A stretch of DNA of 64,000 nucleotides from Bacteroidia bacterium (GTDB taxonomy: Bacteria; Bacteroidota; Bacteroidia; J057): assembly GCA_033391075.1 (NCBI GenBank), contig JAWPMV010000001.1, positions 2,480,001 through 2,544,000 of the forward strand, written 5' to 3'. Below, one piece after another: positions 34,038 through 59,026 of this stretch (positions are counted from its first letter, which is position 1; each line of letters opens with the position of its first letter). The notes beneath the pieces were generated by a model. The model saw only the letters and a program-made list of their open reading frames with translations. It made no database searches and was not told where the DNA came from. A program made the translations under genes and the position numbers.

Positions 34038-35480
34038 TCAGGATTTTTGAAGACCTTCTTTCATCTGAAATAGCATGCGCCATTGCTTTCTGAAAAGAAA
34101 AAGGATAAGGCTAAGTAAGAGGGCAAATTGCAAGGGCGATCTGAATCTCCACTCAAGGACTTCCCAGCTGCTGGCTATCAAAAAGATAGCTCCACTAATG
34201 AGTAAAATATCGAGGGCAGGAAAAGCGGGAATATCTGCTGATCTGTAGACATTGCTTCGATAGGCAAAAAGTAGGAGGGAAAGTAAATTGCTCGCAGCGA
34301 TTGAGGCGATGGCTCCCATTATTCCATGCGCCGGAACCCAAAAATAAAAGCCTGCCAGGAGGACTATCAAATTGAGAAATCCCAAACTTGATATTTCATA
34401 GGCCTTTTTTACAAATACCAATTGAAGATTATAAACCCGGATGAGAATTCCTGGTAAAAGGGCCAGGGCACCCCAGCTGAAATAAGGAATGACCTCCAGG
34501 AAGTCAGTTTTATCTGTCAATAGAGGAAGAAAGGCAGATAACATAAGGATAGCAGACAGAAAAAGACAAGATACAGCTACATAATATCGAAGCAGAATAT
34601 GGGCCTCTTTTAATGATTCCGCATCTCCCGCTTTTAACCTGCTAAATAAAAATGGACGTATAGCATTATCCATGGCATTCAGAAGGATACGCGAAAAACC
34701 CAGGATCGCCATAAGCAAGGCATATTTACCTACTTCCTTAAGTTCGCTGAATTGCTCGAAGAGGATGCGATCTCCCCGGATAATCATCCAGTTCATGAGA
34801 ATAAATGGAATGATTCCCAGAGAATACCTTAAGGAAGGTCTGAGGAAATCTAATTCGATTTTCCACTTCAGTAGCCTGAAATTTAATAGGAAAAACAAAA
34901 GAAAAATGAAAGCCTGTGCTATCAAACTTCCCAAAAGAGCACCTTCCACTCCTTTTCCCAAAACCAGAATGAAATAGGCTTGCAAGGCAAAGATTAAGGA
35001 AAATTCCCCCAGATTGTAAAAGGCAAATTCCTTGAGCCTGATCTGATTTTTTAAGAAGATCATATAGGGACTTTTGGCCAGGGAAAGGAAGCTTGCGGCA
35101 AGCGCATAGAAGCCAAATGGATAAAAACTCAATGCTTCCGAACGGAAAATGAAGCCAAACAGGAAAGGACCGATTATCAGCATCAATCCAAAAAAGAAGA
35201 TGAGGAGGATCAAGCCAAAACTAAATATCTGACTCAGGTAATTATTAAGTTTTTCTGGCTCCTGTTCATAGTCAAAATAGAAAGTCCGCATGGCGGCATC
35301 TAGTTTTAAATTACCGAGCATAGCAGCAAATCCGGCAAAAATTATGACCAGATTCATAATTGCATATTCCTCACTACTAAGTTGATTGAGGTATAAAGGC
35401 AATAAAAAAATCCCAGCCAATGCAGGAATAAATCCCAAAGCGGTTAGTACAAGACTTGATATGAAGGGACTTTTAGGCAT
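34038..35480 (-). CDS. Polysaccharide/lipid-linked saccharide flippase (MOP superfamily)
   Basis: A 480-residue integral membrane protein with about 12-14 helices, of the polysaccharide-synthase/O-antigen flippase type (Wzx-like). The N-terminal segment SPFISSLVLTALGFIPALAG and a conserved central RGDRILFEQFSELKEVGKYALL are typical of this group. It should flip a lipid-linked glycan from the cytoplasmic to the outer face of the inner membrane. Its start overlaps the end of the upstream glycosyltransferase gene by 8 bases. It is 63 bases before ribA on the same strand, so the whole set is probably one transcript. Confidence 0.85.
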   Translation of the reverse strand: MPKSPFISSLVLTALGFIPALAGIFLLPLYLNQLSSEEYAIMNLVIIFAGFAAMLGNLKLDAAMRTFYFDYEQEPEKLNNYLSQIFSFGLILLIFFFGLMLIIGPFLFGFIFRSEALSFYPFGFYALAASFLSLAKSPYMIFLKNQIRLKEFAFYNLGEFSLIFALQAYFILVLGKGVEGALLGSLIAQAFIFLLFFLLNFRLLKWKIELDFLRPSLRYSLGIIPFILMNWMIIRGDRILFEQFSELKEVGKYALLMAILGFSRILLNAMDNAIRPFLFSRLKAGDAESLKEAHILLRYYVAVSCLFLSAILMLSAFLPLLTDKTDFLEVIPYFSWGALALLPGILIRVYNLQLVFVKKAYEISSLGFLNLIVLLAGFYFWVPAHGIMGAIASIAASNLLSLLLFAYRSNVYRSADIPAFPALDILLISGAIFLIASSWEVLEWRFRSPLQFALLLSLILFLFRKQWRMLFQMKEGLQKS

Positions 35481-44642: not shown

Positions 44643-46154
44643 TTAGCTGATTTGTGGCTTGAGTTTCTCTCGCTTTCGTAAACTTAATCCTATCAATACC
44701 ATCACAAACAGTCCCAGTAAAATATAAGGAACCCATTTGAACCAATTAGGAAGAACGGGAAGGATAAATTCTCCTTTGTCTTCTTTTTCTGGTAAGGGCT
44801 CCAGATAGCCCCAATCTATGATGTGATGATCATATTCTTCGATATAATCCTGATATCCGATAGCGGGCCAGTCAGTTAAGGATTCCAGAGATTTTACTTC
44901 TTCTATTCTCCTTTTTCTTAAGCTTTTCAAGTAGGTCTGTGCTGCATCGCAATTATAAAGTCCAGTCGTAGATTTGCCCGGATACCTGAGCACATATCTT
45001 CCCTGAAAGTTTTCCCAATTAGGGGTTTCCTGGAAAGTCAGATCCTGAGGGAAGGTCTCTCGATTGTAGCGCACATGCATGCGGCTGATATAAAGTTTTC
45101 CGGAATAATTGAAATTGTTCCTGCTATTTAGCCAATCCACTCCTGCATCTACCAATTGAGGGTAGGTAAGGGCTGGAGTAGGACAAGGATCGCATTTGAC
45201 AGGATTGCTACCTGTAATGTTCCATCCGTATTCAAACATGACTCCGTCTTTTCCTTTTTCTGCCCAGGACTTATCGAAAAGTGAGCTGTAAAAATTGTCG
45301 AATAATCCTGCTACGGCTAAGGGGACGTCCATATTGCTGGGAATTTCATGGGTCTGATAATTGGTGCATTCGATTCTTCCCTTCTTGGAAAAAGCATAGA
45401 CGATCATATCCTGATCTCCTTTTGCATTGGCCATGCCTAGTCGGATGGGAAGCATAAATCGCTCCGAATTATAAGTGATTTGAAGAGGGTGCAGGTATTT
45501 ATTCCGCTGCTTTTCGAAGGCTTTCTCATTGACTTTTACCACAAAGAATTTCATTCCGCTTTTGATATAAGGTTCCAAAACCTCGGAGGCTCCTTTCGGA
45601 ATTTGATAGTCATGATCTTTTAGCCATTCTTCAAGGCCCTTTGATTTTTTAGCCGAAAGTATGAGGATGTCATATCCTCCGATGGTGTATTTTTTTTGAA
45701 CTTTGACCTTATATTTTTTCCTTTTACCTGCTACTACCACTTCATCCAGACTGGTGACGGCCATACTCAGTTGTCTATGCTCTCTAATTGATTCCCCAAC
45801 TATGGTTATTTCATTTTCTGCATTGGGTAAGGGACAATAGAAGTTAGGGTCATGGTACTTCACCAATCTTGGACCTGTATAATCGTTGAGTCGGGTGAAA
45901 ATATCTTTCTCTATGACTTTGATCTGCTCTTTTTGCAGCACTTCCGGAACGGGAACTACCATGGCGAAATCCTTGATATCTCCGTGGAAATCGCTGTACA
46001 TGGTTACTGTCATCTTATTCCCATCCTTTACCAGTATGACCTGTGAGGCATGGTTGAATAGATCCAGAGAAGCTTTTGCTACGTAAAATCCGCAAAAAGC
46101 CTGGCTGTGCTGGAATCCAAATAGGACCAGCAGAATCGCTAGTATGTTTTTCAT
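44643..46154 (-). CDS. DUF2330 membrane-anchored protein, copy B
   Basis: A 503-residue exported protein. The start is ATG 46154 (an upstream TTG at 46178 is less likely); residues 1-20 are a signal peptide ending QAFCGFYVAKA. Nearly the whole length is DUF2330: DFHGDIKDFAMVVPVPEVL near residue 60, FFVVKVNEKAF, LPIRLGMANAKGDQDMIVYAFSKKGRIECTNY in short conserved pieces. The C-terminus carries one membrane helix followed by a basic tail (SLRKREKLKPQ), so the domain faces the periplasm. It is a paralogue of the next gene upstream (46206-47705). The family has no known function. Third gene of an operon that starts with an RnfD-like membrane protein. Confidence 0.85.
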   Translation of the reverse strand: MKNILAILLVLFGFQHSQAFCGFYVAKASLDLFNHASQVILVKDGNKMTVTMYSDFHGDIKDFAMVVPVPEVLQKEQIKVIEKDIFTRLNDYTGPRLVKYHDPNFYCPLPNAENEITIVGESIREHRQLSMAVTSLDEVVVAGKRKKYKVKVQKKYTIGGYDILILSAKKSKGLEEWLKDHDYQIPKGASEVLEPYIKSGMKFFVVKVNEKAFEKQRNKYLHPLQITYNSERFMLPIRLGMANAKGDQDMIVYAFSKKGRIECTNYQTHEIPSNMDVPLAVAGLFDNFYSSLFDKSWAEKGKDGVMFEYGWNITGSNPVKCDPCPTPALTYPQLVDAGVDWLNSRNNFNYSGKLYISRMHVRYNRETFPQDLTFQETPNWENFQGRYVLRYPGKSTTGLYNCDAAQTYLKSLRKRRIEEVKSLESLTDWPAIGYQDYIEEYDHHIIDWGYLEPLPEKEDKGEFILPVLPNWFKWVPYILLGLFVMVLIGLSLRKREKLKPQIS

Positions 46155-46205
46155 GTCAGGTAAAATTAAAATGGGCAAGGACAGGACGCCCTTGCCCGAT
46201 TATGT

Positions 46206-47705
46206 TTAGCTTAGTTGGAAATTTCTTTGTCTATTCCTGATCAGAATTCCCGTTAGCAGGATGCTCAGGATACTAAGCACAATGAGTGCCCAGAAGAGGG
46301 CCCCTTGAGAAGCCGGGCCAAATAGGAAGAAGAAGCCGCCTTTTCCATTGTTCTTTTTCTCGGGCAATGGTTGGAGATAGGGGCTATTCCCATTTTTCAT
46401 CATCTTATCATACTCACGAATATAGCCTTGATATTCTGCTATGCTCCAATTGGTCAGATCAGCAAGGTTTTTCACTTCCTGAACTCTGCGATCATGAAGA
46501 TTTTGTAGATAATTCTGACCAGCACTACAGCTCAAATCTCCCTTGGCAGGATGTCTCATGATGTAGCGTCCCTGGAAATTCTCTTTGTTAGGCGTTATCT
46601 GAAACATCAGGTCTTGAGGAAATGTCTTGCGATTGTATCTCACATGCAGGCGCGTCATAAATACATCTCCGGTATAATTGCTTCCCGCAGTTCTTTGATT
46701 GTTTACCCAGAAGACTCCTGCTTCTCTCAAATCTGCATATTGGGGAGGAGTGCCTACACAGGGATCACATTTTACATAATTTCTGGAGCTTAGGTCCCAG
46801 GCGTATTCCAGCATCAGGGCATTCTTTCCAGCATCTGCCCAGGCTTTATCGAAAAGTGACTTATAAAAGGGGCCGAATTTGGGTTGGATAGCCAAAGGAA
46901 TTTCAATATTTGAGGGGATTTCAAGGGTACGGTAATTGGTGGACTCAATCCGACCTTTTTGGGAGAAAGAATAGACAATCATGTCTTGATCTCCATTGGC
47001 ATTGGCCATACCCAAACGGATAGGTAGCATGAATTTCTCTGAACGGAAAGTCATTTGAATGGGACGAAGATTTTCTAATCCCTGGCTCTGAAAATTTTCC
47101 AGATTAACTTTCACCACGAAAAACTTCATGTCGCTTTTGATGTAGGGTTCTAAAACAGAAGCGGCTTTCTCAGGGATTTTGTATCCATTTTTCGTTAGCC
47201 ATCTTTCCAGCCCATTAGATTCTTCTGCTGAAAGGATGAGGATGTCATATTCCCCTATGGTATAGGTTTCCAGAATAGTAACTCCATCATCTTTAGCTTC
47301 TTCCATCATCATTTCCATTTCCATATCTTCAACCGGTGCAGCTGCCATTTCCATGCTTGTACTTTTATTATAATACACTCGCTGACAGGGATTGGGATCA
47401 TAATATTCTACCAATCTTGGACCGCTATAGGCATCGAGGATATCGAATATGCTTTGCTTGCTTATCCTGATTTGGTTTCTCTGCAAAACTTCAGCTACTG
47501 GAACTACCATAGCGAAATCTTTTACATCTCCTTCAAAGTCGCTGGACATGGTAATGGCCACTTGTGTTCCATCACGGGCAATGATTACCTGAGAAGTCTT
47601 GTTGAATAATTTTGCATCTGCTTTTGCTACATAGAAGCCACAGAAAGCGAAGCTTTGTATTGCGTGAGCAAAAAAGAACAATGATGTTAATACGGTTGTA
47701 CGCAT
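46206..47705 (-). CDS. DUF2330 membrane-anchored protein, copy A
   Basis: A 499-residue paralogue of the downstream DUF2330 protein, collinear with it throughout (AFCGFYVAKAD, DFEGDVKDFAMVVPVAEVLQ, LGMANANGDQDMIVYSFS, SSRNYVKCDPC). A distinguishing insert around residues 118-140 is methionine- and glutamate-rich (MEMEMMMEEAKDD), which could bind metal. It has an N-terminal signal peptide and a C-terminal helix followed by a basic tail (RNRQRNFQLS). Conserved paired cysteines (CDPC) in both copies may bind a cofactor or form a disulfide. 9 bases after the RnfD-like gene and 51 bases before copy B. Confidence 0.85.
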   Translation of the reverse strand: MRTTVLTSLFFFAHAIQSFAFCGFYVAKADAKLFNKTSQVIIARDGTQVAITMSSDFEGDVKDFAMVVPVAEVLQRNQIRISKQSIFDILDAYSGPRLVEYYDPNPCQRVYYNKSTSMEMAAAPVEDMEMEMMMEEAKDDGVTILETYTIGEYDILILSAEESNGLERWLTKNGYKIPEKAASVLEPYIKSDMKFFVVKVNLENFQSQGLENLRPIQMTFRSEKFMLPIRLGMANANGDQDMIVYSFSQKGRIESTNYRTLEIPSNIEIPLAIQPKFGPFYKSLFDKAWADAGKNALMLEYAWDLSSRNYVKCDPCVGTPPQYADLREAGVFWVNNQRTAGSNYTGDVFMTRLHVRYNRKTFPQDLMFQITPNKENFQGRYIMRHPAKGDLSCSAGQNYLQNLHDRRVQEVKNLADLTNWSIAEYQGYIREYDKMMKNGNSPYLQPLPEKKNNGKGGFFFLFGPASQGALFWALIVLSILSILLTGILIRNRQRNFQLS

Positions 47706-47714
47706 GCTTAATGA

Positions 47715-48566
47715 TTATTTGTTGTATGATTTAGACGATTGTTTGATCCAGTGAAAACTCTTTCCTCCGTATTTCTTATTGAGGAAAACGGTGAGTGGAC
47801 TTACGATAATGAGGGCCCAAATGGGCGCATCAAAAGTGTAAAACCAGCTGCTGAGGATATAGGTAAAAACTCCGATGATTACAGCCCAGATGATGCGGGC
47901 TTTGGGAGCCTTTGGAGTTGTTTTGGGGTCGGTGATCATGAAGAAGGTGAACAGTAAGAGGGTTCCGCTACTCATGCTGTGAAAAAAATGATCCAAAGGC
48001 CAACCCTTATAGATCACCTGTTCGATAAATATGAGTCCACCAAAACTGAATAGGAATCCCAGGCTTGTATCTATTCTTCCGACCTTGAGCAAGACGATCA
48101 AGGCTGCTGCTCCCATCATAAAGAGAAGGACAACATCACTGCCCCATTGTCCGGGAGAAACCCAGGCTTTCCCCGTAAGTAAGATCGCTCCAATGATGCC
48201 GATATTGGCGGGATTGAACAGATGGGAATCCTTGTAACGAATCAAGAATTTGGAACTGATGGCAATGAAAGCAGCCAGGCCCAATACCCATAAATCAGAA
48301 GATTTGCAGAGAAGGCATAAACCCAGAGCGGTAATCATGGCACTCTTGAGTCCCTGCATGCTGAGTTTATGCTTCTTGAGGAATACAAATTGCGTGAAAA
48401 GAGAGACTGATATGAGCAGCGCATAGGCGGCCAGATTTGCCTGCCAACCCAGAGCAAATATGCCATAAAGCAAAAATCCTCCCAGGTATATAATCTGAAA
48501 ATGCCGGGCATCTTTCAGCAAGTGAAAGTTGGGAACTTTTGGCAAAGTAAGGCTCAGTGAACTCAT
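47715..48566 (-). CDS. RnfD/NqrB-like integral membrane protein (stand-alone)
   Basis: A 283-residue protein with about eight or nine membrane helices related to the NQR2/RnfD/RnfE family. Family-like segments are HLFNPANIGIIGAI (about 117-130) and FFMITDPKTTPKAPKAR (about 216-232), which in NqrB/RnfD lie near the covalent flavin and quinone path. No other rnf or nqr genes are nearby. The threonine flavinylation motif of true RnfD (SGAT-type) is replaced by SSGTL (about 206-210), so flavin attachment is uncertain. It is the first gene of an operon with two DUF2330 proteins, suggesting a membrane electron-transfer partner for them. Confidence 0.78.
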   Translation of the reverse strand: MSSLSLTLPKVPNFHLLKDARHFQIIYLGGFLLYGIFALGWQANLAAYALLISVSLFTQFVFLKKHKLSMQGLKSAMITALGLCLLCKSSDLWVLGLAAFIAISSKFLIRYKDSHLFNPANIGIIGAILLTGKAWVSPGQWGSDVVLLFMMGAAALIVLLKVGRIDTSLGFLFSFGGLIFIEQVIYKGWPLDHFFHSMSSGTLLLFTFFMITDPKTTPKAPKARIIWAVIIGVFTYILSSWFYTFDAPIWALIIVSPLTVFLNKKYGGKSFHWIKQSSKSYNK

Positions 48567-48783: not shown

Positions 48784-49044
48784 TTAGTTGTATCTTCCTG
48801 TATGTTTTTCTATGGTTTTTTGGCTTGGAAAAAGGGCAAGCAAAATGCCGGTAAAGAAAGCTCCTAATCCCATAAAGGATCTCCAGTTCCACTGATAATA
48901 ATCCATATTATTTAAGGAGACTTCATACCCATTAATGTTCTGTTCAATTACTTCTCCTCCAATTCCCATTCCCCAAAGGGTAACAAATAGGCCTATGATG
49001 ATCAGGCTTAAAGCGATTGAGTTTTTTGCGTCAAGATTTGGCAT
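48784..49044 (-). CDS. Small two-helix membrane protein
   Basis: An 86-residue protein with two membrane helices (about 11-30 and 56-72) joined by a roughly 25-residue polar loop (EQNINGYEVSLNNMDYYQW), and a basic C-terminal tail. I do not recognise a family. It has its own terminator downstream, and a hairpin upstream separates it from the MoxR operon, so it appears to be a single-gene unit. Start is ATG 49044; no ribosome-binding site of note. Confidence 0.65.
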   Translation of the reverse strand: MPNLDAKNSIALSLIIIGLFVTLWGMGIGGEVIEQNINGYEVSLNNMDYYQWNWRSFMGLGAFFTGILLALFPSQKTIEKHTGRYN

Positions 49045-49142: not shown

Positions 49143-51734
49143 TTAAAAGCGCCAGAAATTGTTCAGGTCCCGAGAAAGGCTTTTTGCCTGAAAATAGTAC
49201 CTATTGTTGGGATCGCTTTTGATTCGCTGAAGATGGCTTTGGCTTATCTCGCTTTCTCCTTTTGCTAAATATGCCAAAGATAAATACCAGTCTTTGAGCT
49301 CAGAAGCAAAACCATCCAATTGACTATTCTCCAGAACTTCGCTTGCGTCTTCATAATCCCCATTGCTAAAAGCAGCCATTGCGAAGCGAAATCTATCGGC
49401 CTCATGCAGGGAATTAAGATCCTGCTTACTTATGCCAAACACTTCTGTAGGTCCATGAAATGAATCGAAATATTTATCAAATAAATGCTGATCGCTGTAC
49501 TTTTTGCTTTGAACAGCTGAAAAAGCCAGAAAGGCTCCCAGGATCAGGCTGAGAAGTGCGGGACTGATAAAGCGATTGTATTTGCTGAGGTAGTCGCTTA
49601 TGCTCCAGCTGGAGTTTCGCTTCATGAGACTTTGCATAGAGCTGTTTAACATATTATGGCTCCATAGAAAGCGCAGCTTTTCCTGAAGTTTTTGATCCTC
49701 CGGATACAGGGCCGCTTCATGTATGCTTTTCTGAATTTGTTTTTGTTGATAAGCTTGCGAACCTGGAGGTACTTCCGTTTCCTCCAAAAGCTCAAGAATG
49801 GCTTGTCTGGCAAGCTCTTCGGTTTGTGGATCAAGTTCCTTTAGCAAGTCTTTTTTAAGCTGCAAAGGAGCTTCTCCGCTTTGCATCCAGGGGATACGAC
49901 TGAGTTTAAGGAGCTTGTCATAAGAAACCAGTTTATTGGCATCTGTTTCCAGACCGGATGCTTTATCAAGGGCTTTTCCGATTTTCAAGGTCATGGCCCA
50001 GGAAGGTTCGGCCGAAAGCATGCTTGCGGTTACCCATTTGTATAAAGCATCTCCCAGATAATCTTGTAGATCTTCTTTGGATTCAAAATCATAATCCTCC
50101 AGCGGGGGTTTAGCATTACTGCTAGCCAGTGCTTCCGATTTCATGCTCTCGAAATCCTGAATATCATCAGCTAATAAGGCTTCCAGGATTCCTTCCTGTT
50201 GACTAAGGTTTGCTTCCAGGACCTTGAATTGTCCCTGCAATTCCCTTTCTCTAAATCCCCAGGAATTGATAGGCTCTGGAGTGAGAATTACTTTTTCAGA
50301 CCAGGCTTCAAAACTGCTTTCCGCCCAATCAGCCAATTGATGAGTCTTAAGATCTATCAAGTAAGAAGCTTTACTGAAAATCAACAACCTATCTGCCCGT
50401 ATCTTTTTATCTATTAAGTCTAGTTCTATGCCTTCCGGAAAGTCTTCGTTATAGCAAAAACGAGGATCATTTCGGAAACGGAAACTGACAATGGGAACCT
50501 CTTCTTTTTTCAAGAGGAGCATCAATTGCTCAAATAATTCAGCCAGATGGTCCGAAGGTCCACTTTCGTCTATCAAAACCAGGTATTCACAACTCTCTTT
50601 TTCTGCCTCATAGACCAAAGCCGGAAATCCTCCGCTCCGAACCGTTTCATAAAGGGTATGCTTGATGTCCAGTTGCAAGTTTTCGGAGGCCCTCCTTTTT
50701 TTGAGTTTCTCGGCCAAACTATACATGCCAGCTTCTGCTTGCAATTCTTCTTCCCAATCCGGATAAGGAAGGCTGTAAGGAGCTTCTGAACCTGATTGGA
50801 AAAATTGCTTGAAATGGAAGCTGTATTGATTATGTTTCAGACTTTCAAGGTAGGACTCTACGCCAATAATCAACACAAGCGCCAAGAGAAAAACAGACCA
50901 TTTGATCATCGTTAATTTGTCGACTTGCTCCTGAAGTTGCTGATTGTTGTAGGCAATATGATCTACTGCTAAATCATACACAGGCAGACTCATTATTTTA
51001 CTTTCGTCTCCTATGCTAAGTCTTACAGTATAGATGCCCGGATCTTTATAAAGATGTTTGGGTTTCAAGAGTTGGGAAGAGGTATTGTCTCCAAAATCCC
51101 AGCGTAGCTCATATTGACTTAGGTCTTGTGGGCTTTCTATGATGAAATCAAAAGCTTCAGAAGCAATTACATGTCTAGGGCCGGGATGAAAGTCAAATTC
51201 TACTAATTTATCAGACTTTTCCTTACTGCTTTGGGTAGCTAACTGATCTGAAGAAGTTTCTTCCTGTCTTTTTATGATGTTTAGGTTTTCAGAAGCATTT
51301 TCCAGTATGTTTACGATTTCATTGCTTTCACTTGGTGGAAGAGGAGCTACATAATCGGAAGGAGTTTGTTGGTAGAGGAGAAAAGCATAGGTTCCAATCA
51401 GAAATAAAACAGCCAGTGCATACAGTCCGATTCGCTTTTTATTGAGCTCTTTTTTTATGACTTCTTTATCCGGAAACTCCCAATCCTCCGTAGCGACTGG
51501 AGCAAGTTCTTTCAATTCTGTATGATAAGCCTTAAAAGCATGTTTGAACTTTTCCTGTTCTTCTACATTCTTTGCAATAACAGGACTCAGGATTTGACTT
51601 AATTTTTCGGCTTGGCCCAGGTAATCGGCTCCCAGTTTTTGTAGAACTTCCTGTACCTTCAATTGCTCTGAGGGGCTTAGGTGAATGCCATATTGCTCGA
51701 GCTTGGTAAGGAGGCTACTGAGTGGGAGTTTCAT
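49143..51734 (-). CDS. Membrane protein with PKD domain and vWA-like domain, MoxR partner
   Basis: An 863-residue protein. Residues 1-80 are a helical domain ending in VEEQEKFKHAF, similar to the N-termini of vWA partners of MoxR ATPases. TM helix 1 is 102-121. A PKD domain spans about 180-255 (LRWDFGDNTSS, GIYTVRLS). TM2 is about 277-296. A vWA-like Rossmann domain spans about 383-500: YLVLIDESGPSD resembles a degenerate MIDAS (D389, S391, S394), then LLIFSKASYLID and LTPEPINSWGF. Residues 500-730 are helical, TM3 is about 735-755, and the end is TPR-like. No catalytic domain is recognised. It follows the ATPase gene by 5 bases. It probably transmits ATP-driven conformational change across the membrane; function unknown. 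Confidence 0.72.
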   Translation of the reverse strand: MKLPLSSLLTKLEQYGIHLSPSEQLKVQEVLQKLGADYLGQAEKLSQILSPVIAKNVEEQEKFKHAFKAYHTELKELAPVATEDWEFPDKEVIKKELNKKRIGLYALAVLFLIGTYAFLLYQQTPSDYVAPLPPSESNEIVNILENASENLNIIKRQEETSSDQLATQSSKEKSDKLVEFDFHPGPRHVIASEAFDFIIESPQDLSQYELRWDFGDNTSSQLLKPKHLYKDPGIYTVRLSIGDESKIMSLPVYDLAVDHIAYNNQQLQEQVDKLTMIKWSVFLLALVLIIGVESYLESLKHNQYSFHFKQFFQSGSEAPYSLPYPDWEEELQAEAGMYSLAEKLKKRRASENLQLDIKHTLYETVRSGGFPALVYEAEKESCEYLVLIDESGPSDHLAELFEQLMLLLKKEEVPIVSFRFRNDPRFCYNEDFPEGIELDLIDKKIRADRLLIFSKASYLIDLKTHQLADWAESSFEAWSEKVILTPEPINSWGFRERELQGQFKVLEANLSQQEGILEALLADDIQDFESMKSEALASSNAKPPLEDYDFESKEDLQDYLGDALYKWVTASMLSAEPSWAMTLKIGKALDKASGLETDANKLVSYDKLLKLSRIPWMQSGEAPLQLKKDLLKELDPQTEELARQAILELLEETEVPPGSQAYQQKQIQKSIHEAALYPEDQKLQEKLRFLWSHNMLNSSMQSLMKRNSSWSISDYLSKYNRFISPALLSLILGAFLAFSAVQSKKYSDQHLFDKYFDSFHGPTEVFGISKQDLNSLHEADRFRFAMAAFSNGDYEDASEVLENSQLDGFASELKDWYLSLAYLAKGESEISQSHLQRIKSDPNNRYYFQAKSLSRDLNNFWRF

Positions 51735-51739
51735 GGGAC

Positions 51740-52696
51740 TTATAGATTTTGGATACGATTTAGGTCTTCCTTGTTCTTAGCTAATACGGAATAACTGAGC
51801 TTAAGGATGCTTTTCTGTCGGGGACTCAACCGTCTAAAATTGAGGCCTTCTTTCAGAAATTCGTTTAACTCTAATATACGCAACCAGGCAATAAGTTCGG
51901 CGGTTGCCGGTTTTTTCTTTTTCACCAGTTCTCTGATCTTTTCAAAATGCAGGATGAGGTCTTCATCTGCATAGTCCGATCTTTTCCCTAATTGACTTAA
52001 GGCTATTTCTGTTAATTGTTTTCTTTTGGGGAAAGGGATATGGTAAAACACACATCTTCGCAAAAAGGGTTCTGGCAGATTCTTTTCAGAATTGCTGGTC
52101 ATGATGACAATGATCTTCCCTTTATTCCCTTTTCGGATGATGTGATTATTGGATTCCTTGATCTCAAAACTATTGTTCTCAATCTCGTGGAGAATGTCAT
52201 TGGGGAAATCTCTGGGAGCTTTATCGATCTCGTCAATTAAAACAACAGAACTTTTAGGGGCTTTCTCTGATATAAAAGTACCCTTCTTTATCTCATCTGC
52301 ATTACTAAGGGCAATGGCTTTTCCCATAGCTCTAAGGTCAATATAATTTGAACTCTCAGGAGCTTCTGTTCCAGCCGCTTTGCTGAGGTTCGCATCATGG
52401 AAATGCCGAAGCGCATCGTAATTGTAGAAAAGATCCTGGGCCTTGGAAGCTGTTTTCGTATGGAAGACGAGGGGTTCTGGTAAAAAATTCTCATGATCCC
52501 TTGAAAGATCCCAGGCAATCTTATGGGCAAGACGAGTTTTTCCTGTTCCGGGTTCTCCCGTCAATAGCAGAGGTTGTCCCAAAGCTACTGCAACTTCCAC
52601 GGCTGCAGCTAAATCTACGTGGAGGATGTAGTTCTCAGGATTGTGAGCATACTGCTGGAATGCCTTGTCTCCAAGATCCAGATTGATTTTGGCCAT
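51740..52696 (-). CDS. MoxR-family AAA+ ATPase
   Basis: A 318-residue AAA+ ATPase. Walker A is GEPGTGKT (47-54), Walker B VVLIDEID (151-158), sensor 1 is VIMTSNSEKNLPEPFLRR around 200-217 with the arginine-finger region, and the C-terminal helical lid follows. MoxR ATPases act as chaperone-like remodelling machines with vWA-domain partners, for example in metal-cofactor insertion or conflict systems. One base separates its start from the stop of the upstream DUF350 gene, and its stop is 5 bases before the vWA-like gene, so the three are translationally coupled. Confidence 0.9.
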   Translation of the reverse strand: MAKINLDLGDKAFQQYAHNPENYILHVDLAAAVEVAVALGQPLLLTGEPGTGKTRLAHKIAWDLSRDHENFLPEPLVFHTKTASKAQDLFYNYDALRHFHDANLSKAAGTEAPESSNYIDLRAMGKAIALSNADEIKKGTFISEKAPKSSVVLIDEIDKAPRDFPNDILHEIENNSFEIKESNNHIIRKGNKGKIIVIMTSNSEKNLPEPFLRRCVFYHIPFPKRKQLTEIALSQLGKRSDYADEDLILHFEKIRELVKKKKPATAELIAWLRILELNEFLKEGLNFRRLSPRQKSILKLSYSVLAKNKEDLNRIQNL

Positions 52697-52697
52697 A

Positions 52698-53606
52698 CTA
52701 TATGATGAAGAAAAGAACCAGGGAGAAGCAAATGGCTACTACCATTTCCAAAAGGCCTGCTCCTATATTTTGATCCTGAGCTATTTCTGTATTCAGGTCA
52801 GAGTTGCGCAGGATAAATTTGTCGAATATAAATCTGACAGCAATCAGGTAAACAAAAACCACCAGAACTTCTACCGCAAGCAAGCTAAGGTCTTCTACCC
52901 ATCCGCTGAAGTTGCCGGAGACTGCTTGCATAACAATGATACCGATAGAGATCAATCCCCCGGCAAATCCCAATCCCGCAGCAAGATTATCTTTCTCTAT
53001 TTCGTCATGGACTGAATAAGGAGTAAGCTTTGCATAGATCCTCGCAAAGAGAATAAGACACAATTGACCGAGAATAAAGAAAACGAGAGAAATAAAGAGA
53101 TTACTCCCTTCCCCATGTAGGGCTCCAGCTATAATTAAACCTGAGGCTATATATGAGGCAGCTTCAACTACGCCCGTTCCGGGATTCTGGTCCTTAATGA
53201 TCTCTTTATCAACTGAAAACTCTGTCAGAATCAGTTTGCGATTGACAAGCCTGGCTCCATGCAGTAAGAGGATACCTGCTATGGCTATTCCCACCGAAAG
53301 GGAAAGATCCAGAAAAGTATCCATATCGAAGGCAGATATATTGGGACTGATAGCGGCTCTTTCAGCCAGGGTAAGATTAGGGGCTGGATCAACAATGGCT
53401 CCTATAAATACAGCTGTGACCCCCACAAAATAACCTGCGGTACTTACAGATACAGCATTATTGTCATAGTGGGTAAGTTGTTCATCCAAATTATAACTCG
53501 AGAATGCTCCTTTCAGCCATTTGGCAAAAAAGAATAAGCCGATGTAGGATAGGATGAATAAAGTATTGACAATTATCGTAGTAGGTTCGGGCAGAAAGTC
53601 CGGCAT
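52698..53606 (-). CDS. DUF350 multispan membrane protein
   Basis: A 302-residue inner-membrane protein with eight predicted helices arranged as four repeats. Each repeat begins with an acidic-polar lead such as DEQLTHYDNNAVS, DKEIIKDQNPGTG, HDEIEKDNLAAGL or NTEIAQDQNIGAG, followed by a helix; the repeated N-x-[AG]-x-G pattern is the DUF350 hallmark. Stand-alone DUF350 proteins are shorter, so this is a duplicated form. DUF350 proteins are found with PspA-like and spermidine-synthase-like envelope genes and have no proven activity. Here the gene precedes the MoxR ATPase gene by one base, which suggests it is the membrane platform of the system. Confidence 0.82.
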   Translation of the reverse strand: MPDFLPEPTTIIVNTLFILSYIGLFFFAKWLKGAFSSYNLDEQLTHYDNNAVSVSTAGYFVGVTAVFIGAIVDPAPNLTLAERAAISPNISAFDMDTFLDLSLSVGIAIAGILLLHGARLVNRKLILTEFSVDKEIIKDQNPGTGVVEAASYIASGLIIAGALHGEGSNLFISLVFFILGQLCLILFARIYAKLTPYSVHDEIEKDNLAAGLGFAGGLISIGIIVMQAVSGNFSGWVEDLSLLAVEVLVVFVYLIAVRFIFDKFILRNSDLNTEIAQDQNIGAGLLEMVVAICFSLVLFFII

Positions 53607-53659
53607 ATTGTGTGAATTTTCCTGAAAATAAGGAGAAAAATACTGAAAAAAGAAATCTA

Positions 53660-53678
53660 AAGCCTTGAGAAAAGGCTT
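53660..53678 (-). terminator. Hairpin over the stop codon of the repeat/TM gene (attenuator-like)
   Basis: AAGCCTT (53660-53666) and AAGGCTT (53672-53678) form a perfect 7-base stem. It includes two bases of the TAA of the upstream gene and, on the minus strand, is followed by a T-rich tract (TTAGATTTCTTTTTTC). It sits in the only sizeable gap (70 bases) of the four-gene operon and may reduce read-through into the DUF350-MoxR-vWA part. Confidence 0.4.
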
Positions 53679-54771
53679 ATTGCTGTTTGGCTTCTTTTTG
53701 AGGGAGGTTAAATCCTTCTACATATTTAAGTAGGATCACGAGAGCACCCAATGCAATTACGCTTGCAAATACCCAACAAAGGACTGGCTGAAATCCCAAA
53801 AAGCCAAAAAGCTCATTGCTGGATACCCATACAGCCAGGCAAATACCATAGCCGTATATGCTTAGTTCCCGATTACTCAGTTGTTTGCTTCGGGTATACA
53901 TAAAATAGCCCGCGGATAAGAGGGCAAGTGCCATCACAAAATGCAGAAAAACAGGAGCCAGTAAAAAAACAACTGCAGCATTGATAACAAAAAGTGCAAG
54001 CCATACATAGGCAAGGCTCATGGCACTTTTCTCTTCTATGTCTTTTTCTTTTTTATGTTGCTTGATAATTTCAAATAGAGGACTGGAATTGGGATTGATG
54101 GCTATTTTTTCTGGCTCAGTCTTATTAGGAATTGCTTTTCTGACTACTTTTTCTCCAAATGCCTCCAGACGCTGGGCAGCTAAATTTGAAAATTTTCCTG
54201 CAGGAAATTTTTCCAGAAAATCCCGATAGGCGAGTGCTGTATTTAATTTGTCTGCTCGTTCCCAATTTTGCAATTCTATTTCCAGAAATCGGTATTGAAC
54301 AGCCAGGCGAGATTCCAGCTGGTGCATGCGCTCCCGAATTTGCTTTCCATAAGCACTATGAGGGAAACTTTTCAGGAAATGATTATAGGCAGCTATGCTG
54401 TCAAGGTTGGTGGCTTCTTCCAGAGCCAACTCCTCCAGTTGAATTTCTGCTGAATTGCCGGTTTCTTCCTGAGGCTTCTTTAATTGATTTTTCTCAAGTT
54501 TGATGATTCGTTTCCCCGCGAGTTTTGCGAATTTACCATTGGGGTAATCATCCAGGAATTTTTCATAGGTGTAAATCCGGTCGCTTCTTTGAGCTATTCG
54601 CCAGGCCCTTTCTTCCTCGAGTTCTTCTCTTCTCTGGATCGCGGATTCTCGGTAATTACTATTTGGGAATTGGGATAGGAACCTCAGGTATGCGGTAAGG
54701 GTATCTTGCTCACACGCATTTAACCAGGCATCATGTTCGTGCCTTTCTTTAATGTTAGAGGTTTCGTTCAT
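53677..54771 (-). CDS. Helical-repeat protein with C-terminal membrane helices
   Basis: A 364-residue protein. The N-terminal two thirds hold four short helical repeats of about 45 residues with the pattern W..A...D...AY..FL..FP.G.[FY]...A..R: around residues 12-55, 55-100, 115-155 and 165-210 (for example YEKFLDDYPNGKFAKLAGKR, YRDFLEKFPAGKFSNLAAQR). Repeats of this type occur in bacterial signalling and conflict proteins and probably bind partners. Residues about 248-355 contain four membrane helices. No signal peptide, so the repeats are cytoplasmic. First gene of the minus-strand operon with DUF350, MoxR and vWA-like proteins. Confidence 0.72.
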   Translation of the reverse strand: MNETSNIKERHEHDAWLNACEQDTLTAYLRFLSQFPNSNYRESAIQRREELEEERAWRIAQRSDRIYTYEKFLDDYPNGKFAKLAGKRIIKLEKNQLKKPQEETGNSAEIQLEELALEEATNLDSIAAYNHFLKSFPHSAYGKQIRERMHQLESRLAVQYRFLEIELQNWERADKLNTALAYRDFLEKFPAGKFSNLAAQRLEAFGEKVVRKAIPNKTEPEKIAINPNSSPLFEIIKQHKKEKDIEEKSAMSLAYVWLALFVINAAVVFLLAPVFLHFVMALALLSAGYFMYTRSKQLSNRELSIYGYGICLAVWVSSNELFGFLGFQPVLCWVFASVIALGALVILLKYVEGFNLPQKEAKQQ

Positions 54772-54864
54772 TGGCTATTTCCCAATCCAATCCTATATAC
54801 TTGCAATATACGAATTCTATTCCTGATTTGGAGAGGCTTTCTGGGATTACTTACTTTATGTTTC

Positions 54865-56187
54865 ATGAGCAATGGTCGTACCAAATATCTCTGGATTGGA
54901 ATGATTCTTATCCATTTCTGCTTTCTCCTTTACCAGGGATTCGAAGGGGGCTACTTTTTAGTCGATTCTGAGGACTATATACAAGCCAGTAAAAACCTAT
55001 GGGAAAAGCAAAGTCTATATTCCGCTGAAATGGATGAAGGGAATTTGTATGAAGGGAATTTTAGCCGTAGACCTCCCCTATATCCTGCCTTCTTACTCCC
55101 TGCATATATCTTAAATGAAAGCTGGATAATCGGCCTTATTCTGCAAAATCTTATCAGTTTGCTCTCTATCGGGCTTTTTTTAAAGATTTACCAACTCTTG
55201 TATCCCGATAAAAATATCCCTTATCTGCTTATTGCATGCCTTTTCTTTTACCCTGCCCAATTTATTTATGCCAACTTGATCATGAGTGAAAGCCTCTTTC
55301 AGCTTTTGCTAACGGCTAGTTTATTTTATTTGTTGAAAGGAGAAAAAGAAGATTCAAAAAAATATTTTCTCTTGCATGCATGTTGTTTGGCGGCAGCCCT
55401 ATTAACAAAGCCTGTACTATATTTATTCATTCCTGTCCATGCTTTGTATTTTTTGTTTCGTGGAGTTAGAAAAAGAAAAAGTTATTTTTTTCTAACAGCC
55501 CTTATTCCCCTGATTGTTCTCTTTTCCTATTCATGGAGAAATTATTTACAGACAGATTACCTACACGTTTCAAGTGTTCAGAATATCAATTTGTTGCAAT
55601 ATCCCGTTACTTATATCCTTTCACAGGAGATGGAAGTAGAAAAAGCGGATAGTCTCATCGATCATTTTCATGTTGAAGCTCGAAAAAAGGAGAGTTTTAA
55701 AGAAGAACAAAAGTATTGGAGCGAAAAAAACAGGGAAGTCCTCTTTCGCTATCCGGGAACTTTTATAAAACTTCAAGTGCGGGGCATGCTAAATTTCTTT
55801 CTGGATCCGGGGAGATTTGATGTGTATCATTTCTTTGGGATAAAAGCTTCGGCTGGAGAAGGATTGATGGCTACTTTTGGAAAAGATGGTTATCGTGGAA
55901 TTTGGAATTATTTAGCTCGGCAGCCCCTGGGGATTCTCTTTTTACTATTTGGAGTGCTGCTAATCAATGGGATAAAGTTTCTCGGGCTTTTGGCTTTCCC
56001 TTTTCAGAAAGAAATTCCCCTTAGGTCCCGGCTTTATATTTGGCTTCCTGTGATTTACCTCGCAGCTGTAACTGGAGTCATGGGAGCTTCAAGATTTTCG
56101 CTTCCTGTTTTTTTCTTTTTGCTGCTTATGCTTGTCCCTTTTATTGAAAAGTTGCACTCCCTTTATTTGAAGATCAGATCCCAGTAA
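54865..56187 (+). CDS. GT-C fold membrane glycosyltransferase (GT39/PMT-like)
   Basis: A 440-residue integral membrane protein with about 10-12 helices. The first extracytoplasmic loop contains VDSEDYIQ, equivalent in place to the catalytic acidic motif of GT-C enzymes (ArnT/PMT), followed by FSRRPPLYPAF, as is usual in this family (R..P..P). A roughly 70-residue soluble loop lies around 240-310. It should transfer sugar from a polyprenyl-phosphate donor on the outer side of the inner membrane. The frame is open from 54733, but that would overlap the divergent gene; ATG 54865 (MSNGRTKYL) gives the expected N-terminal helix. Its 3' end overlaps the convergent reductase gene by 25 bases. Confidence 0.78.
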   Translation: MSNGRTKYLWIGMILIHFCFLLYQGFEGGYFLVDSEDYIQASKNLWEKQSLYSAEMDEGNLYEGNFSRRPPLYPAFLLPAYILNESWIIGLILQNLISLLSIGLFLKIYQLLYPDKNIPYLLIACLFFYPAQFIYANLIMSESLFQLLLTASLFYLLKGEKEDSKKYFLLHACCLAAALLTKPVLYLFIPVHALYFLFRGVRKRKSYFFLTALIPLIVLFSYSWRNYLQTDYLHVSSVQNINLLQYPVTYILSQEMEVEKADSLIDHFHVEARKKESFKEEQKYWSEKNREVLFRYPGTFIKLQVRGMLNFFLDPGRFDVYHFFGIKASAGEGLMATFGKDGYRGIWNYLARQPLGILFLLFGVLLINGIKFLGLLAFPFQKEIPLRSRLYIWLPVIYLAAVTGVMGASRFSLPVFFFLLLMLVPFIEKLHSLYLKIRSQ

Positions 56188-57395
56188 AAAGAAGGTTTAG
56201 AGAGTTCTTTTCGGATATCGAGATTCTCAAACATCATGGTAAACATGGTTCTGAGAGAAGGATTTCGATTGGCTTTGTTGACGATGAAATTGAATAACCA
56301 GGGGAAGCGCACCAGTTTTTGCATTTTGTAGCTTAGGTCCAGTTCTTTACCCAGGCGTCTATATACTTCCGCATCATACTTCTGGAAAAAGGAAGAAGAT
56401 TGATCCTGATCGCTGATCGATTTCTGAGCCCATTCTGCTGCAAATATTCCACTCATCATGGCATTGCTGATACCTTCTCCCGTGAAAGGGTCAATTAAAG
56501 AGGCCGCATCTCCCACCAACATATAATTATCTCCTGATATCTTTCTCTTTTTTGAGCCCAGAGGTAATCCAAATCCTTTGATGGAATCCACCATTTCAGC
56601 ATCCTCAAAGCGCTCTTTGAGATGAGGGTGATTTTCTATTAGTTCATGGAGTTTGCTTTTGAGATTGATCTTGTGTTTGCTCACATGTTCACTGAGCATA
56701 CCCAGACCCACATTAGCCATATCTTTGTCCAGGGGAAAAATCCATAAGTAGCCGGGAAGTAAATCCTTGAGGTAATGGAGTTCAATGAAGTTTTCTTCAT
56801 TAAAACCTTTGACTCCCTTATAATAAGCCCGGATTCCTGCGCTATGATGCTTTTTATCCATCTTCTCGTCCGCGAGGAGCTTGCTCAATCTGGACTGAGC
56901 ACCATCAGCTGCAATTACGATCTTGGCCTGGATATCCTCTTTTCCATTTGATAAGCAAATCTTTCCTGATTCACGTCGAGCTTCCTGGACTTTGAAGTTC
57001 TGTTTAATTTGGATATTCTTTTTCTCCTGAATCAATTTGAAGAGAAAACTATCAAACGCTATTCTTTTACTGATGAAACCAGGGGACCTGCTTTCTGCAG
57101 TTCGCTTGCTATAGAAAGGTATATCCAGGGCTCTTTTATTCGGGGCAAAGAAGCGAATGCCCCAGGTATCCAGTTTCTCCGAAAATTGATAAAGGGATTC
57201 TTTGTAGGAAGGATCAATCATTCTCAATGCGTCCAGCACCTTGCCGCTTAAGGCATCGCCACAAATTTTATCTCGGGGGAAAACATCCTTTTCAAGCAGG
57301 ATTACGGACAAATCTGTCTCAGCCAATTTAAGGGCTGCTGCTACACCGCCCGGACCGGCTCCTGCAATTGCAACATCAAATTCTTTGGTCATCAT
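56163..57395 (-). CDS. Geranylgeranyl-reductase-family FAD oxidoreductase
   Basis: A 410-residue flavoprotein. The FAD dinucleotide motif is AIAGAGPGGVAAA (about 9-21), the family loop FPRDKICGDALSG (about 39-51), ADGAQSRL around 160, and the second FAD motif MLVGDAASLIDPFTGEGI around 280-297. Members reduce isoprenoid chains (archaeal lipids, chlorophyll or menaquinone side chains) or hydroxylate small molecules. In Bacteroidota they are common but mostly uncharacterised. The start overlaps the upstream stop by 4 bases (ATGA), so it is translated together with the YVTN-SPOR protein. Substrate unknown. Confidence 0.85.
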   Translation of the reverse strand: MMTKEFDVAIAGAGPGGVAAALKLAETDLSVILLEKDVFPRDKICGDALSGKVLDALRMIDPSYKESLYQFSEKLDTWGIRFFAPNKRALDIPFYSKRTAESRSPGFISKRIAFDSFLFKLIQEKKNIQIKQNFKVQEARRESGKICLSNGKEDIQAKIVIAADGAQSRLSKLLADEKMDKKHHSAGIRAYYKGVKGFNEENFIELHYLKDLLPGYLWIFPLDKDMANVGLGMLSEHVSKHKINLKSKLHELIENHPHLKERFEDAEMVDSIKGFGLPLGSKKRKISGDNYMLVGDAASLIDPFTGEGISNAMMSGIFAAEWAQKSISDQDQSSSFFQKYDAEVYRRLGKELDLSYKMQKLVRFPWLFNFIVNKANRNPSLRTMFTMMFENLDIRKELSKPSFYWDLIFK

Positions 57396-59026
57396 TGTTT
57401 GAGCACCCAGGCTTGTATACCGGTTTTCTTGCGAAAATCTTTGGCTGCATCACTTGCAAGCTCTTTCGCAGAATAATTGCCAGCACTCACTCTGAAACCT
57501 CCTTGTTCATTAGGAAGTACCTTGGTATCATAGCCATCTTTTGAAAGCTCGCGGGCTTTCTTTTGCGCAGATCGATCATTTTGATAACTGCCAACGATAA
57601 CATGATAGGATTGGGTTTCCAGGGCTCGATTGAGGGCCATTTCCGGAAGCCGGGCATTGCTTGGGTTTTTTTGTTTGCTTTCTTTGCTTGCCAATTGCCT
57701 TTGAGGCGCCTGGTTAATTTTATTCGTGTCCGCTTTCTTAAGGGGAGTATCAGGGCTTTCTTCTATGCTTTTTTCCCTGTATACATAAAAAGTGGGATCA
57801 ACAGCTGTTCTTTTTCTGGGTACATAATAAAAGGAACTGGGTCGTTTTCTTTTCTCCTGTACAGCTGGAGGATTTGAAGCCAGATCCGGAGATTCTAAGG
57901 GAATGTCTGCCCATTCATCTTCCAACAAATCTGCATCTTCAAATACCATGATGCTACCGGTATAGCAGGCGACCCAGATGAGTTTGCTTACCGGGTCGAA
58001 GGTAATACCAATAGGTTTTTCATGGGTTTTGATATCTTCCAGAACTACCATGCTGTCTGTGGCAACTTTACTCAATTTATCGTCTTCATAATTGACGACA
58101 TAGAGGTAGTTGGAATTTCCGGAAAGGGTAATGCTCCGGGCTTCTTTACCTGTATTTATTTTTTTTACCAATTCTCTTTTAACCAGATCAATTTTTGCTA
58201 CTTCTCCCTCTCTACTCAAGCTTACATATAAAAAGCGGTCTGAGGGGTCAAGTATAAGATGTCTGGGCGTCTTTCCATAAGCATCCATCCAGTTCATGGA
58301 ATAGTCCAGCAGGTTCAGTACTGCAATCTCATCTTCTCCCATAATACTGATATAGGCGAAACTGGATTTTGAATCAATGGCTATACCTCTGGGGTATTTC
58401 CCCAGTTTGATCCTGCGTAACTCTTCTTCGGTTTCCAGGTCAATAACACTTAAATCCCCACTGCACCAATTAGAAACCAAGAGGATTTTTCCATTGGGAC
58501 TAACTGACAGAAACTTTGGTACAGAACCCACCTCTATCATGGATTCTATTTCTAGGGACTGGGTATTTATTTTGTAAATAAAGCTGGGGTCGTAGGTCTC
58601 ACTGATGACGCAATTATCCTGTCCGGGATTGTTATATCCGGGTCCATACATTTTGTAATTGCTGACATAGGCATAAACTCCTTCTTTATCGAATGCAACT
58701 TCTACGGGAGAACCTTTGAGACTGGAGGGTAAGTCTTCCTGCCCCAATTTTTTGGGATTGACCTGATCTCTGATGGTTTTCAGAAGAGTATAGTTTCGGT
58801 CATAAACTGTAATGCTATGACGATACATCATGTTTTGGGCGAAAAATCTCCCATTGCCTGAATACACAATAGATTTTGGCCGGATGTTTCCTCTAATGAT
58901 TTTCTTAAGCTGGAGACTTTGGCTCAATTCGGTTTCTTGCTGATCACTCCAATCCTGAGGAACTGGTACAAAGCCCCCGATAAAAAATATCAATAGTGCA
59001 GCTAAAAGAATCCGATATAAGTACAT
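57392..59026 (-). CDS. Secreted YVTN beta-propeller protein with C-terminal SPOR domain
   Basis: A 544-residue exported protein (signal 1-22). Residues about 40-375 form a YncE-like seven-bladed propeller (VSPNGKILLVSNW, AYISIMGEDEIAVLNL, LYVVNYEDDKLSKV). A proline/lysine-rich linker follows (about 380-465), and residues about 470-544 are a SPOR domain (YHVIVGSYQNDRSAQKKA, GGFRVSAGNYS). SPOR domains bind peptidoglycan lacking stem peptides at division sites, so the propeller may be held at septal cell wall. It is upstream of, and overlapping, the geranylgeranyl-reductase-like gene. Its own role is unknown. Confidence 0.85.
   Translation of the reverse strand: MYLYRILLAALLIFFIGGFVPVPQDWSDQQETELSQSLQLKKIIRGNIRPKSIVYSGNGRFFAQNMMYRHSITVYDRNYTLLKTIRDQVNPKKLGQEDLPSSLKGSPVEVAFDKEGVYAYVSNYKMYGPGYNNPGQDNCVISETYDPSFIYKINTQSLEIESMIEVGSVPKFLSVSPNGKILLVSNWCSGDLSVIDLETEEELRRIKLGKYPRGIAIDSKSSFAYISIMGEDEIAVLNLLDYSMNWMDAYGKTPRHLILDPSDRFLYVSLSREGEVAKIDLVKRELVKKINTGKEARSITLSGNSNYLYVVNYEDDKLSKVATDSMVVLEDIKTHEKPIGITFDPVSKLIWVACYTGSIMVFEDADLLEDEWADIPLESPDLASNPPAVQEKRKRPSSFYYVPRKRTAVDPTFYVYREKSIEESPDTPLKKADTNKINQAPQRQLASKESKQKNPSNARLPEMALNRALETQSYHVIVGSYQNDRSAQKKARELSKDGYDTKVLPNEQGGFRVSAGNYSAKELASDAAKDFRKKTGIQAWVLKQ

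What the first reader, a model, noticed from the sequence alone, without database searches (positions are those of the whole stretch)
49143..54771. Four-gene membrane system: repeat/TM protein, DUF350, MoxR ATPase, PKD/vWA-like partner
Seen: gaps of 70, 1 and 5 bases link a helical-repeat/TM protein, an eight-helix DUF350 protein, a canonical MoxR AAA+ ATPase and an 863-residue TM-PKD-TM protein with a degenerate vWA-like domain (DESGPS). Known: MoxR ATPases work with vWA partners, and MoxR-vWA modules with helical repeats occur in NTP-dependent conflict systems. Inference: here the vWA partner is membrane-spanning with an extracytoplasmic PKD sensor and a DUF350 platform, giving an ATP-driven envelope surveillance or conflict machine I cannot match to a described system.
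Basis: partly seen in the sequence, partly recalled or inferred. Interest (0 to 1): 0.72.

Follow-up and report, generated by a model that had tools for sequence, protein, structure and literature searches.

The report
Stripped-down membrane MoxR–vWA pair
A Bacteroidota genome carries a membrane-anchored version of a bacterial conflict machine (an ATPase plus its partner) that seems to have shed its usual sensor and weapon, while the two membrane genes in front of it appear to be older neighbours rather than true parts.

Summary
The four minus-strand genes are real and tightly packed (gaps 70, 1, 5). The 863-aa protein holds a vWA domain: profile match to CoxE proteins and a confident AlphaFold core whose best structural matches include midasin and NorD vWA, at modest Z. 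It has three predicted TM segments, not two. But no sign was found that the four genes form one conserved system. The MoxR–vWA pair belongs to the lineage of iSTAND ternary conflict systems (Kaur et al. 2020). This genome has two other loci with all three core parts, and its only two detected iSTAND genes sit there. The window protein falls in a supported group of four short partners (863–946 aa) without a detected iSTAND or recognised effector. DUF350 was seen beside MoxR–vWA nowhere else: 0 of 80 MoxR loci, 0 of 16 DUF350 loci (one with its downstream side off the contig). Its neighbours in two relatives, and those of the repeat/TM gene in a third, are an older block that also flanks the window. 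Best reading: a reduced membrane-spanning MoxR–vWA pair next to unrelated envelope genes; a new variant of a known kind. Function is inferred, not shown.

The parts
49143..51734 (-). 863-aa membrane-spanning vWA partner (three predicted TM segments)
51495..51734 (-). N-terminal helical domain (residues 1-80), related to MadC-type N-termini
   Evidence: NCBIfam MadC residues 12-77, 9.4e-6, under its cut-off; helices 5-14, 21-38, 42-53, 57-80 in the full-length model
51375..51431 (-). TM1 (residues 102-120)
   Evidence: hydropathy scan; 6 K/R in the 15 residues before, 0 in the 15 after
51000..51155 (-). PKD domain (residues 194-245), predicted periplasmic
   Evidence: PKD_4 1e-10
50859..50915 (-). 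TM2 (residues 274-292)
   Evidence: hydropathy scan; charges on the two sides do not tell its direction
50172..50735 (-). vWA domain (residues 334-521); D389 kept, no complete DxSxS, K455 where 25 of 45 rows have Asp
   Evidence: hhalign against CoxE-type alignment, AlphaFold core and PDB comparison, residue counts
49620..50078 (-). all-helical domain after the vWA domain (residues 553-705), conserved in the family; position of the 'vWA-L' linker described for ternary systems
   Evidence: model helices; within the conserved core; vWA-L named in PMC8195603 (passage), identity not tested
49512..49568 (-). TM3 (residues 723-741)
   Evidence: hydropathy scan
49143..49427 (-). helical, TPR-like tail (residues 770-863), predicted periplasmic
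   Evidence: short-clade alignment; model helices, block pLDDT about 31-77; no TPR match in the window protein itself, sub-cut-off TPR matches at this place in L038 and L042
51740..52696 (-). MoxR AAA+ ATPase, 318 aa
   Evidence: Pfam AAA/AAA_5; NCBIfam MadB 2.1e-18 under its cut-off; 53-61% identity to seven relatives' MoxR
52698..53606 (-). DUF350 (YjfL-type) 8-TM protein; adjacent, probably not a conserved part of the machine
   Evidence: Pfam 1.3e-45; relatives of 57-61% identity not seen beside MoxR-vWA
53677..54771 (-). 364-aa YfiO/TPR-like repeat protein with C-terminal TM segments; by synteny part of the upstream block
53660..53678 (-). weak hairpin with T-rich tail at the end of the 364-aa gene (possible terminator; not significant)
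   Evidence: fold of 53628-53676, which cuts the hairpin short, z -1.43
54733..56187 (+). PMT_2-like gene of the older flanking block
56163..57395 (-). FAD oxidoreductase gene of the older flanking block
57392..59026 (-). beta-propeller plus SPOR gene of the older flanking block
48784..49044 (-). 86-aa ORF with hydrophobic segments; relative near the same block in L064

Best explanation
The functional unit is the two-gene MoxR-vWA pair, a reduced offshoot of the membrane-anchored branch of iSTAND ternary conflict systems. Inferred working: MoxR forms a cytoplasmic AAA+ ring that engages the helical N-terminus and the vWA domain of the partner. The partner crosses the inner membrane three times, so its PKD domain and helical tail lie in the periplasm. 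ATP hydrolysis remodels the partner or a protein bound to it, coupling a state sensed in the periplasm to work inside, or the reverse. The iSTAND regulator and the C-terminal effector of its relatives are missing, so it probably acts as an envelope remodelling or sensing chaperone rather than as a complete kill switch. DUF350 and the repeat/TM gene precede it because the pair came to lie next to an older envelope-gene block. Shown by computation: domain content, lineage, no detected iSTAND at the locus, the short group in the vWA tree, no co-conservation in what was searched. Inferred: ring formation, topology, direction of signalling, biological role, and the order of events.
For: vWA core related to CoxE, folded like midasin/NorD vWA. 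iSTAND genes adjoin MoxR and vWA in L038, L039, L043 and L044; FGE-sulfatase in L039 and Amidase_3 in L042 follow TM3. PF19995 in the own genome: two matches, both in its two other loci. Tree of 42 vWA cores: window, L040, L041 and L045 in one group, support 100/97; no iSTAND found in any of the four stretches, and PKD is the only Pfam family over its cut-off in them. Full-length matches in 395 class genomes: four, the same loci (at most two candidates scored per genome). DUF350 in 0 of 80 loci, MoxR/vWA in 0 of 16 DUF350 loci. Flank synteny with G005, G006, G007.
Against: The MoxR tree does not recover the four loci as one group, nor reject it (p-AU 0.186). A missing iSTAND is not special to this group: 10 of 38 other rows of the vWA tree show none, some cut by contig ends. 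My iSTAND profiles may miss divergent forms, and the other third components described (VMAP, iSTAND2, TERNS3; PMC7159879, PMC8195603) were looked for only by Pfam on six neighbours. Some iSTAND systems encode the effector in a separate gene (PMC8195603 passage). L042 has an effector but no detected iSTAND, with about 1.5 kb upstream. DUF350 stands 5' of MoxR, where ternary systems keep their third component, and the 1- and 5-base gaps suggest co-transcription, so a real link in this genome is possible. In two of four DUF350 relatives (L061, L063) the FAD/PMT block was not seen. Full-length model only moderate (pLDDT 73.7, pTM 0.54). PKD is found by Pfam in the window and L040 but not in L041 or L045. 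Insertion of the pair is inferred; gene loss in relatives would also fit.
Confidence: 0.55

Rival explanations
1. Four-gene machine: MoxR and vWA act on or through DUF350 and the repeat/TM protein, with DUF350 as platform, output or replacement third component.
For: Gaps of 70, 1 and 5 bases, same strand. [quoted passage not shown] YjfL-type DUF350 proteins occur in envelope-stress (PSP) operons (PMC11237479, passages).
Against: 0 of 80 MoxR loci with DUF350, 0 of 16 DUF350 loci with MoxR/vWA, none around L040, L041, L045, L148. In G006 and G005 DUF350 keeps company with the FAD/PMT or FAD/propeller genes instead.
Confidence: 0.15
2. A complete conflict system in which an unlinked iSTAND and effector from the two other loci serve this pair in trans.
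For: The genome has two loci with MoxR, iSTAND and vWA; the L038 MoxR is 54-57% identical.
Against: Both iSTAND genes lie beside their own MoxR and vWA; the four short loci, from four genomes, all lack a detected iSTAND.
Confidence: 0.12
3. An ancestral two-gene CoxD-CoxE-like maturation pair rather than a derivative of conflict systems.
For: CoxE homology.
Against: The short group lies among mostly iSTAND-linked proteins in the vWA tree (root at the midpoint only); no metalloenzyme to be matured among the six neighbouring proteins scanned.
Confidence: 0.1
4. A decaying remnant of an iSTAND system without function.
For: No detected iSTAND or effector; K455 where 25 of 45 rows have Asp.
Against: Full-length open frames and intact ATPase motifs; invariant positions through the tail in four proteins of 27-33% identity to the window's.
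Confidence: 0.08

Closest known systems
iSTAND MoxR-vWA ternary conflict systems (Kaur et al. 2020, PMC7159879)
   Same: MoxR beside a vWA protein with a helical N-terminus and membrane segments; paralogous loci in the same genome carry PF19995 iSTAND
   Different: No detected iSTAND gene at the locus and no recognised C-terminal effector; the protein ends with a helical tail
CoxD-CoxE (MoxR plus vWA) pairs
   Same: Two-gene MoxR-vWA unit; vWA domain homologous to CoxE-type proteins
   Different: Three predicted TM segments, PKD, extra helical domain; no Cox enzyme genes among the six neighbours scanned
NorQ-NorD
   Same: AAA+ plus vWA partner; NorD vWA among the best structural matches
   Different: No nitric oxide reductase gene among the six neighbours scanned; the PKD and membrane layout is not known to me from NorD (recalled)
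YjfL/DUF350 proteins of PSP-type operons (PMC11237479, passages)
   Same: 8-TM double DUF350 protein
   Different: No PspA, CesT or spermine synthase among the scanned proteins

Membership tests
iSTAND ternary conflict system | MoxR AAA+ ATPase | tested here: met
iSTAND ternary conflict system | vWA partner with helical N-terminal domain | tested here: met
iSTAND ternary conflict system | iSTAND third component | tested here: not met
   own-genome PF19995 search finds two, both in other loci; none in the window by two profiles; a highly divergent one is not excluded
iSTAND ternary conflict system | variable C-terminal effector on the vWA protein | tested here: not met
   PKD is the only family over cut-off; an undescribed effector in the tail, or one in a separate gene, is not excluded
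iSTAND ternary conflict system | both vWA aspartates (kept in most, not all, ternary systems: PMC7159879 section 8) | tested here: not met
   D389 present, K455 at the second site
CoxD-CoxE pair | CoxE-type vWA domain | tested here: met
   Pfam VWA_CoxE itself E=0.22, under cut-off
CoxD-CoxE pair | genes of the enzyme it matures nearby | tested here: not met
   six neighbouring proteins scanned; the rest of the window was not
NCBIfam MadB/MadC | score over the curated cut-off | tested here: not met
   66.5 against 475 bits; 24.7 against 600 bits
NorQ-NorD | NorD-like vWA fold | tested here: inconclusive
   Z 5.9-6.1, tied with unrelated folds; Foldseek top row at E 0.01
Conflict (anti-phage) system | protection against phage | not testable with these tools
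   needs an assay; the cited papers predict it by computation in what I read
PSP-type DUF350 operon | PspA/CesT/spermine synthase neighbours | tested here: not met
   proteins only

The most novel reading that the evidence does not exclude
Probability: 0.12. Interest if true: 0.65.

Novelty: new variant of a known kind. Interest (0 to 1): 0.42.

Why it matters
If right, it is a natural experiment: the MoxR-vWA engine of a predicted conflict system, kept in four divergent genomes without the parts proposed to sense and kill. That lets one test what the engine itself does, and gives a minimal two-protein target for structure and ATPase work. It also corrects the tempting inference that tight gene spacing here defines a four-part system.

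Tried and rejected
Four-gene co-conservation: searched from the vWA, DUF350, repeat-protein and MoxR sides and not found. Limits: 15 of the 80 MoxR loci are under 8 kb; among the 16 DUF350 loci, L060 shows only 120 bases downstream of DUF350 and L160 only 821. For L060 (G006) the MoxR matches of that genome lie on other contigs (C5, C95), well inside them.

Paper searches: DUF350 with MoxR, 0 papers; MadB/MadC with VWA and ATPase, three listed, none relevant; methylation-associated defence or MAD8, 8 of 32 listed, none relevant; DUF350 alone, 30 of 35 listed; MoxR, vWA, anti-phage, transmembrane, Saprospira, three listed, none seen to describe this arrangement. They cover only the held open-licence library, and most listed papers were seen as listings.

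The 48 of 60 tally is inflated by PKD domains; residues 270-863 give 12 of 22 order genomes, all 12 in the family of 13. Promoter-like sites were fewer than in shuffles (11 against 18.0) and terminator-like sites 15 against 9.6, sd 3.2; the hairpin after the 364-aa gene is weak. A Bacteroidota-type promoter pattern (recalled) matched once, at 34339, no more than chance. Sequence search of solved structures with the vWA core gave no vWA (best E 0.0025, annotated as a lipase-related protein); with MoxR the best was midasin. Foldseek gave no match at E 0.001 or better. MoxR tree: grouping of the short forms neither shown nor rejected; L058, L059 and L066 in it are copies of the window locus. L148, cut by a contig end, may be a fifth short member; not counted.

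Rows dropped: alignment A3 holds 44 of the 80 loci (core match E up to 1e-15 over at least 250 profile positions) plus the window; A4 holds 29 of those 44 plus the window. The tree holds the window, the 20 loci L038-L057 and 21 of the 80 named loci (core E under 1e-60).
Full report
What is there. The four genes lie on the minus strand at 54771-53677, 53606-52698, 52696-51740 and 51734-49143, with gaps of 70, 1 and 5 bases. Pfam finds YfiO-type repeats in the first, DUF350 (two stretches) in the second, AAA families in the third and a PKD domain in the fourth. PADLOC gives matches only to the ATPase, the best 1.1e-7 to mad8. GC content does not set the region apart.

The 863-residue protein. 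Hydropathy shows three TM segments, 102-120, 274-292 and 723-741. With N-in (6 K/R before TM1, 0 after; TM2 and TM3 give no clear sign) the PKD and the tail would be periplasmic and the vWA domain cytoplasmic; this is a prediction. The N-terminus weakly matches MadC. AlphaFold on residues 300-720 with 44 relatives gives pLDDT 90.4 and pTM 0.88. Among its PDB matches by VIA-align the midasin vWA domain is first (Z 7.4, rmsd 3.7, 159 residues), with NorD vWA at Z 5.9-6.1 and integrin I domains at 5.6-5.8; response-regulator receiver domains reach 6.7 and dehydroquinases 6.0. So structure alone shows a Rossmann-like fold. Homology is the stronger line: hhalign of the core against ten CoxE-type partners gives 98.6% and E 1.2e-15 over 186 columns; three of those ten were checked by Pfam and are VWA_CoxE. 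DxSxS is complete in 0 of 45 rows, the first Asp is present in 34 of 45, the strand-4 Asp in 25 of 45, with Lys in the window.

The lineage. Own-genome search shows two paralogous loci. In L038, L039, L043 and L044 an iSTAND gene adjoins MoxR and vWA, in three of the four with a CHAT domain. FGE-sulfatase (L039) and Amidase_3 (L042) were recognised at the C-terminus of long partners. This is the iSTAND ternary system of Kaur et al. (PMC7159879; outline, sections 8 and 20, and passages seen), predicted there by comparative genomics to be a conflict system. PF19995 occurs in 10 of 13 family genomes; the own genome has two matches, both at the paralogous loci. Of 80 MoxR loci from named genomes, 63 have an ORF matching the core profile; of 46 with a strong match, 32 have a detected iSTAND by an iterated profile that also spans part of the CHAT region.

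The short group. In a tree of 42 vWA cores the window protein groups with L040 (G010), L041 (G002) and L045 (G006), support 100/97. All four are 863-946 aa, without detected iSTAND in the stretches held and without a recognised effector. Among 395 genomes of the class only these four match over full length (at most two candidates scored per genome). Against this: the MoxR tree leaves the grouping open (p-AU 0.186); 10 of 38 other tree rows also show no iSTAND; and other short partners without detected iSTAND exist outside the group, such as L147, L076 and L085, so reduction may have occurred more than once, or my profiles miss some third components.

The neighbours. DUF350 relatives of 57-61% identity occur in 4 other genomes of 22 in the order, with no MoxR or vWA in the stretches held. 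In G006 (L060) DUF350 lies next to the PMT and FAD genes, in G005 (L062) directly after the propeller-SPOR and FAD genes, the same genes that flank the window; in G003 and G009 (L063, L061) these were not seen. The repeat/TM gene has a relative in G007 (L064, 30% over 319 residues) beside the same block, and there the 86-aa ORF also has a relative. In the class sample DUF350 of this kind was found in 14 of 395 genomes at E 1e-30; I fetched the 12 loci outside the family, none with MoxR, vWA or iSTAND. Flank lengths are given; L060 is blind downstream, but that genome's MoxR matches lie on other contigs.

Reading. The simplest account is two modules side by side: an older envelope block (propeller-SPOR, FAD, PMT, repeat/TM, DUF350) and a reduced MoxR-vWA pair. 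Whether DUF350 is transcribed with the pair, as the 1-base gap suggests, was not testable here. DUF350 does stand where ternary systems keep their third component, which keeps the bolder reading alive for this one genome. That the pair now serves the envelope rather than defence is inference.

Literature. DUF350 as YjfL in PSP operons: PMC11237479, passages. DGR-linked MoxR-vWA systems: PMC10907252, passages. iSTAND as predicted sensor: PMC12839542, passages. Further third components (iSTAND2, TERNS3), the vWA-L linker, and effectors in a separate gene: PMC8195603, passages. No paper seen in the listings, or in these passages, describes this arrangement; supplements were not available.

Noticed in passing
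window 44643-48566: Two tandem DUF2330 proteins with an RnfD/NqrB-like membrane protein beside them.
   Followed up: no
window 54733-59026: PMT_2, FAD oxidoreductase and propeller-SPOR genes form a block partly kept in G005, G006 and G007.
   Followed up: partly
window 48784-49044: 86-aa ORF with hydrophobic segments, relative in L064 (42% identity); no Pfam match.
   Followed up: partly
L042 2526-7067; L039 6888-11507: In these long relatives the recognised effector (Amidase_3, FGE-sulfatase) follows the third TM segment, so it is predicted to be periplasmic.
   Followed up: partly
L147 8560-12117: Another short partner (862 aa) with MoxR and no detected iSTAND; its MoxR falls in a different part of the tree.
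   Followed up: no
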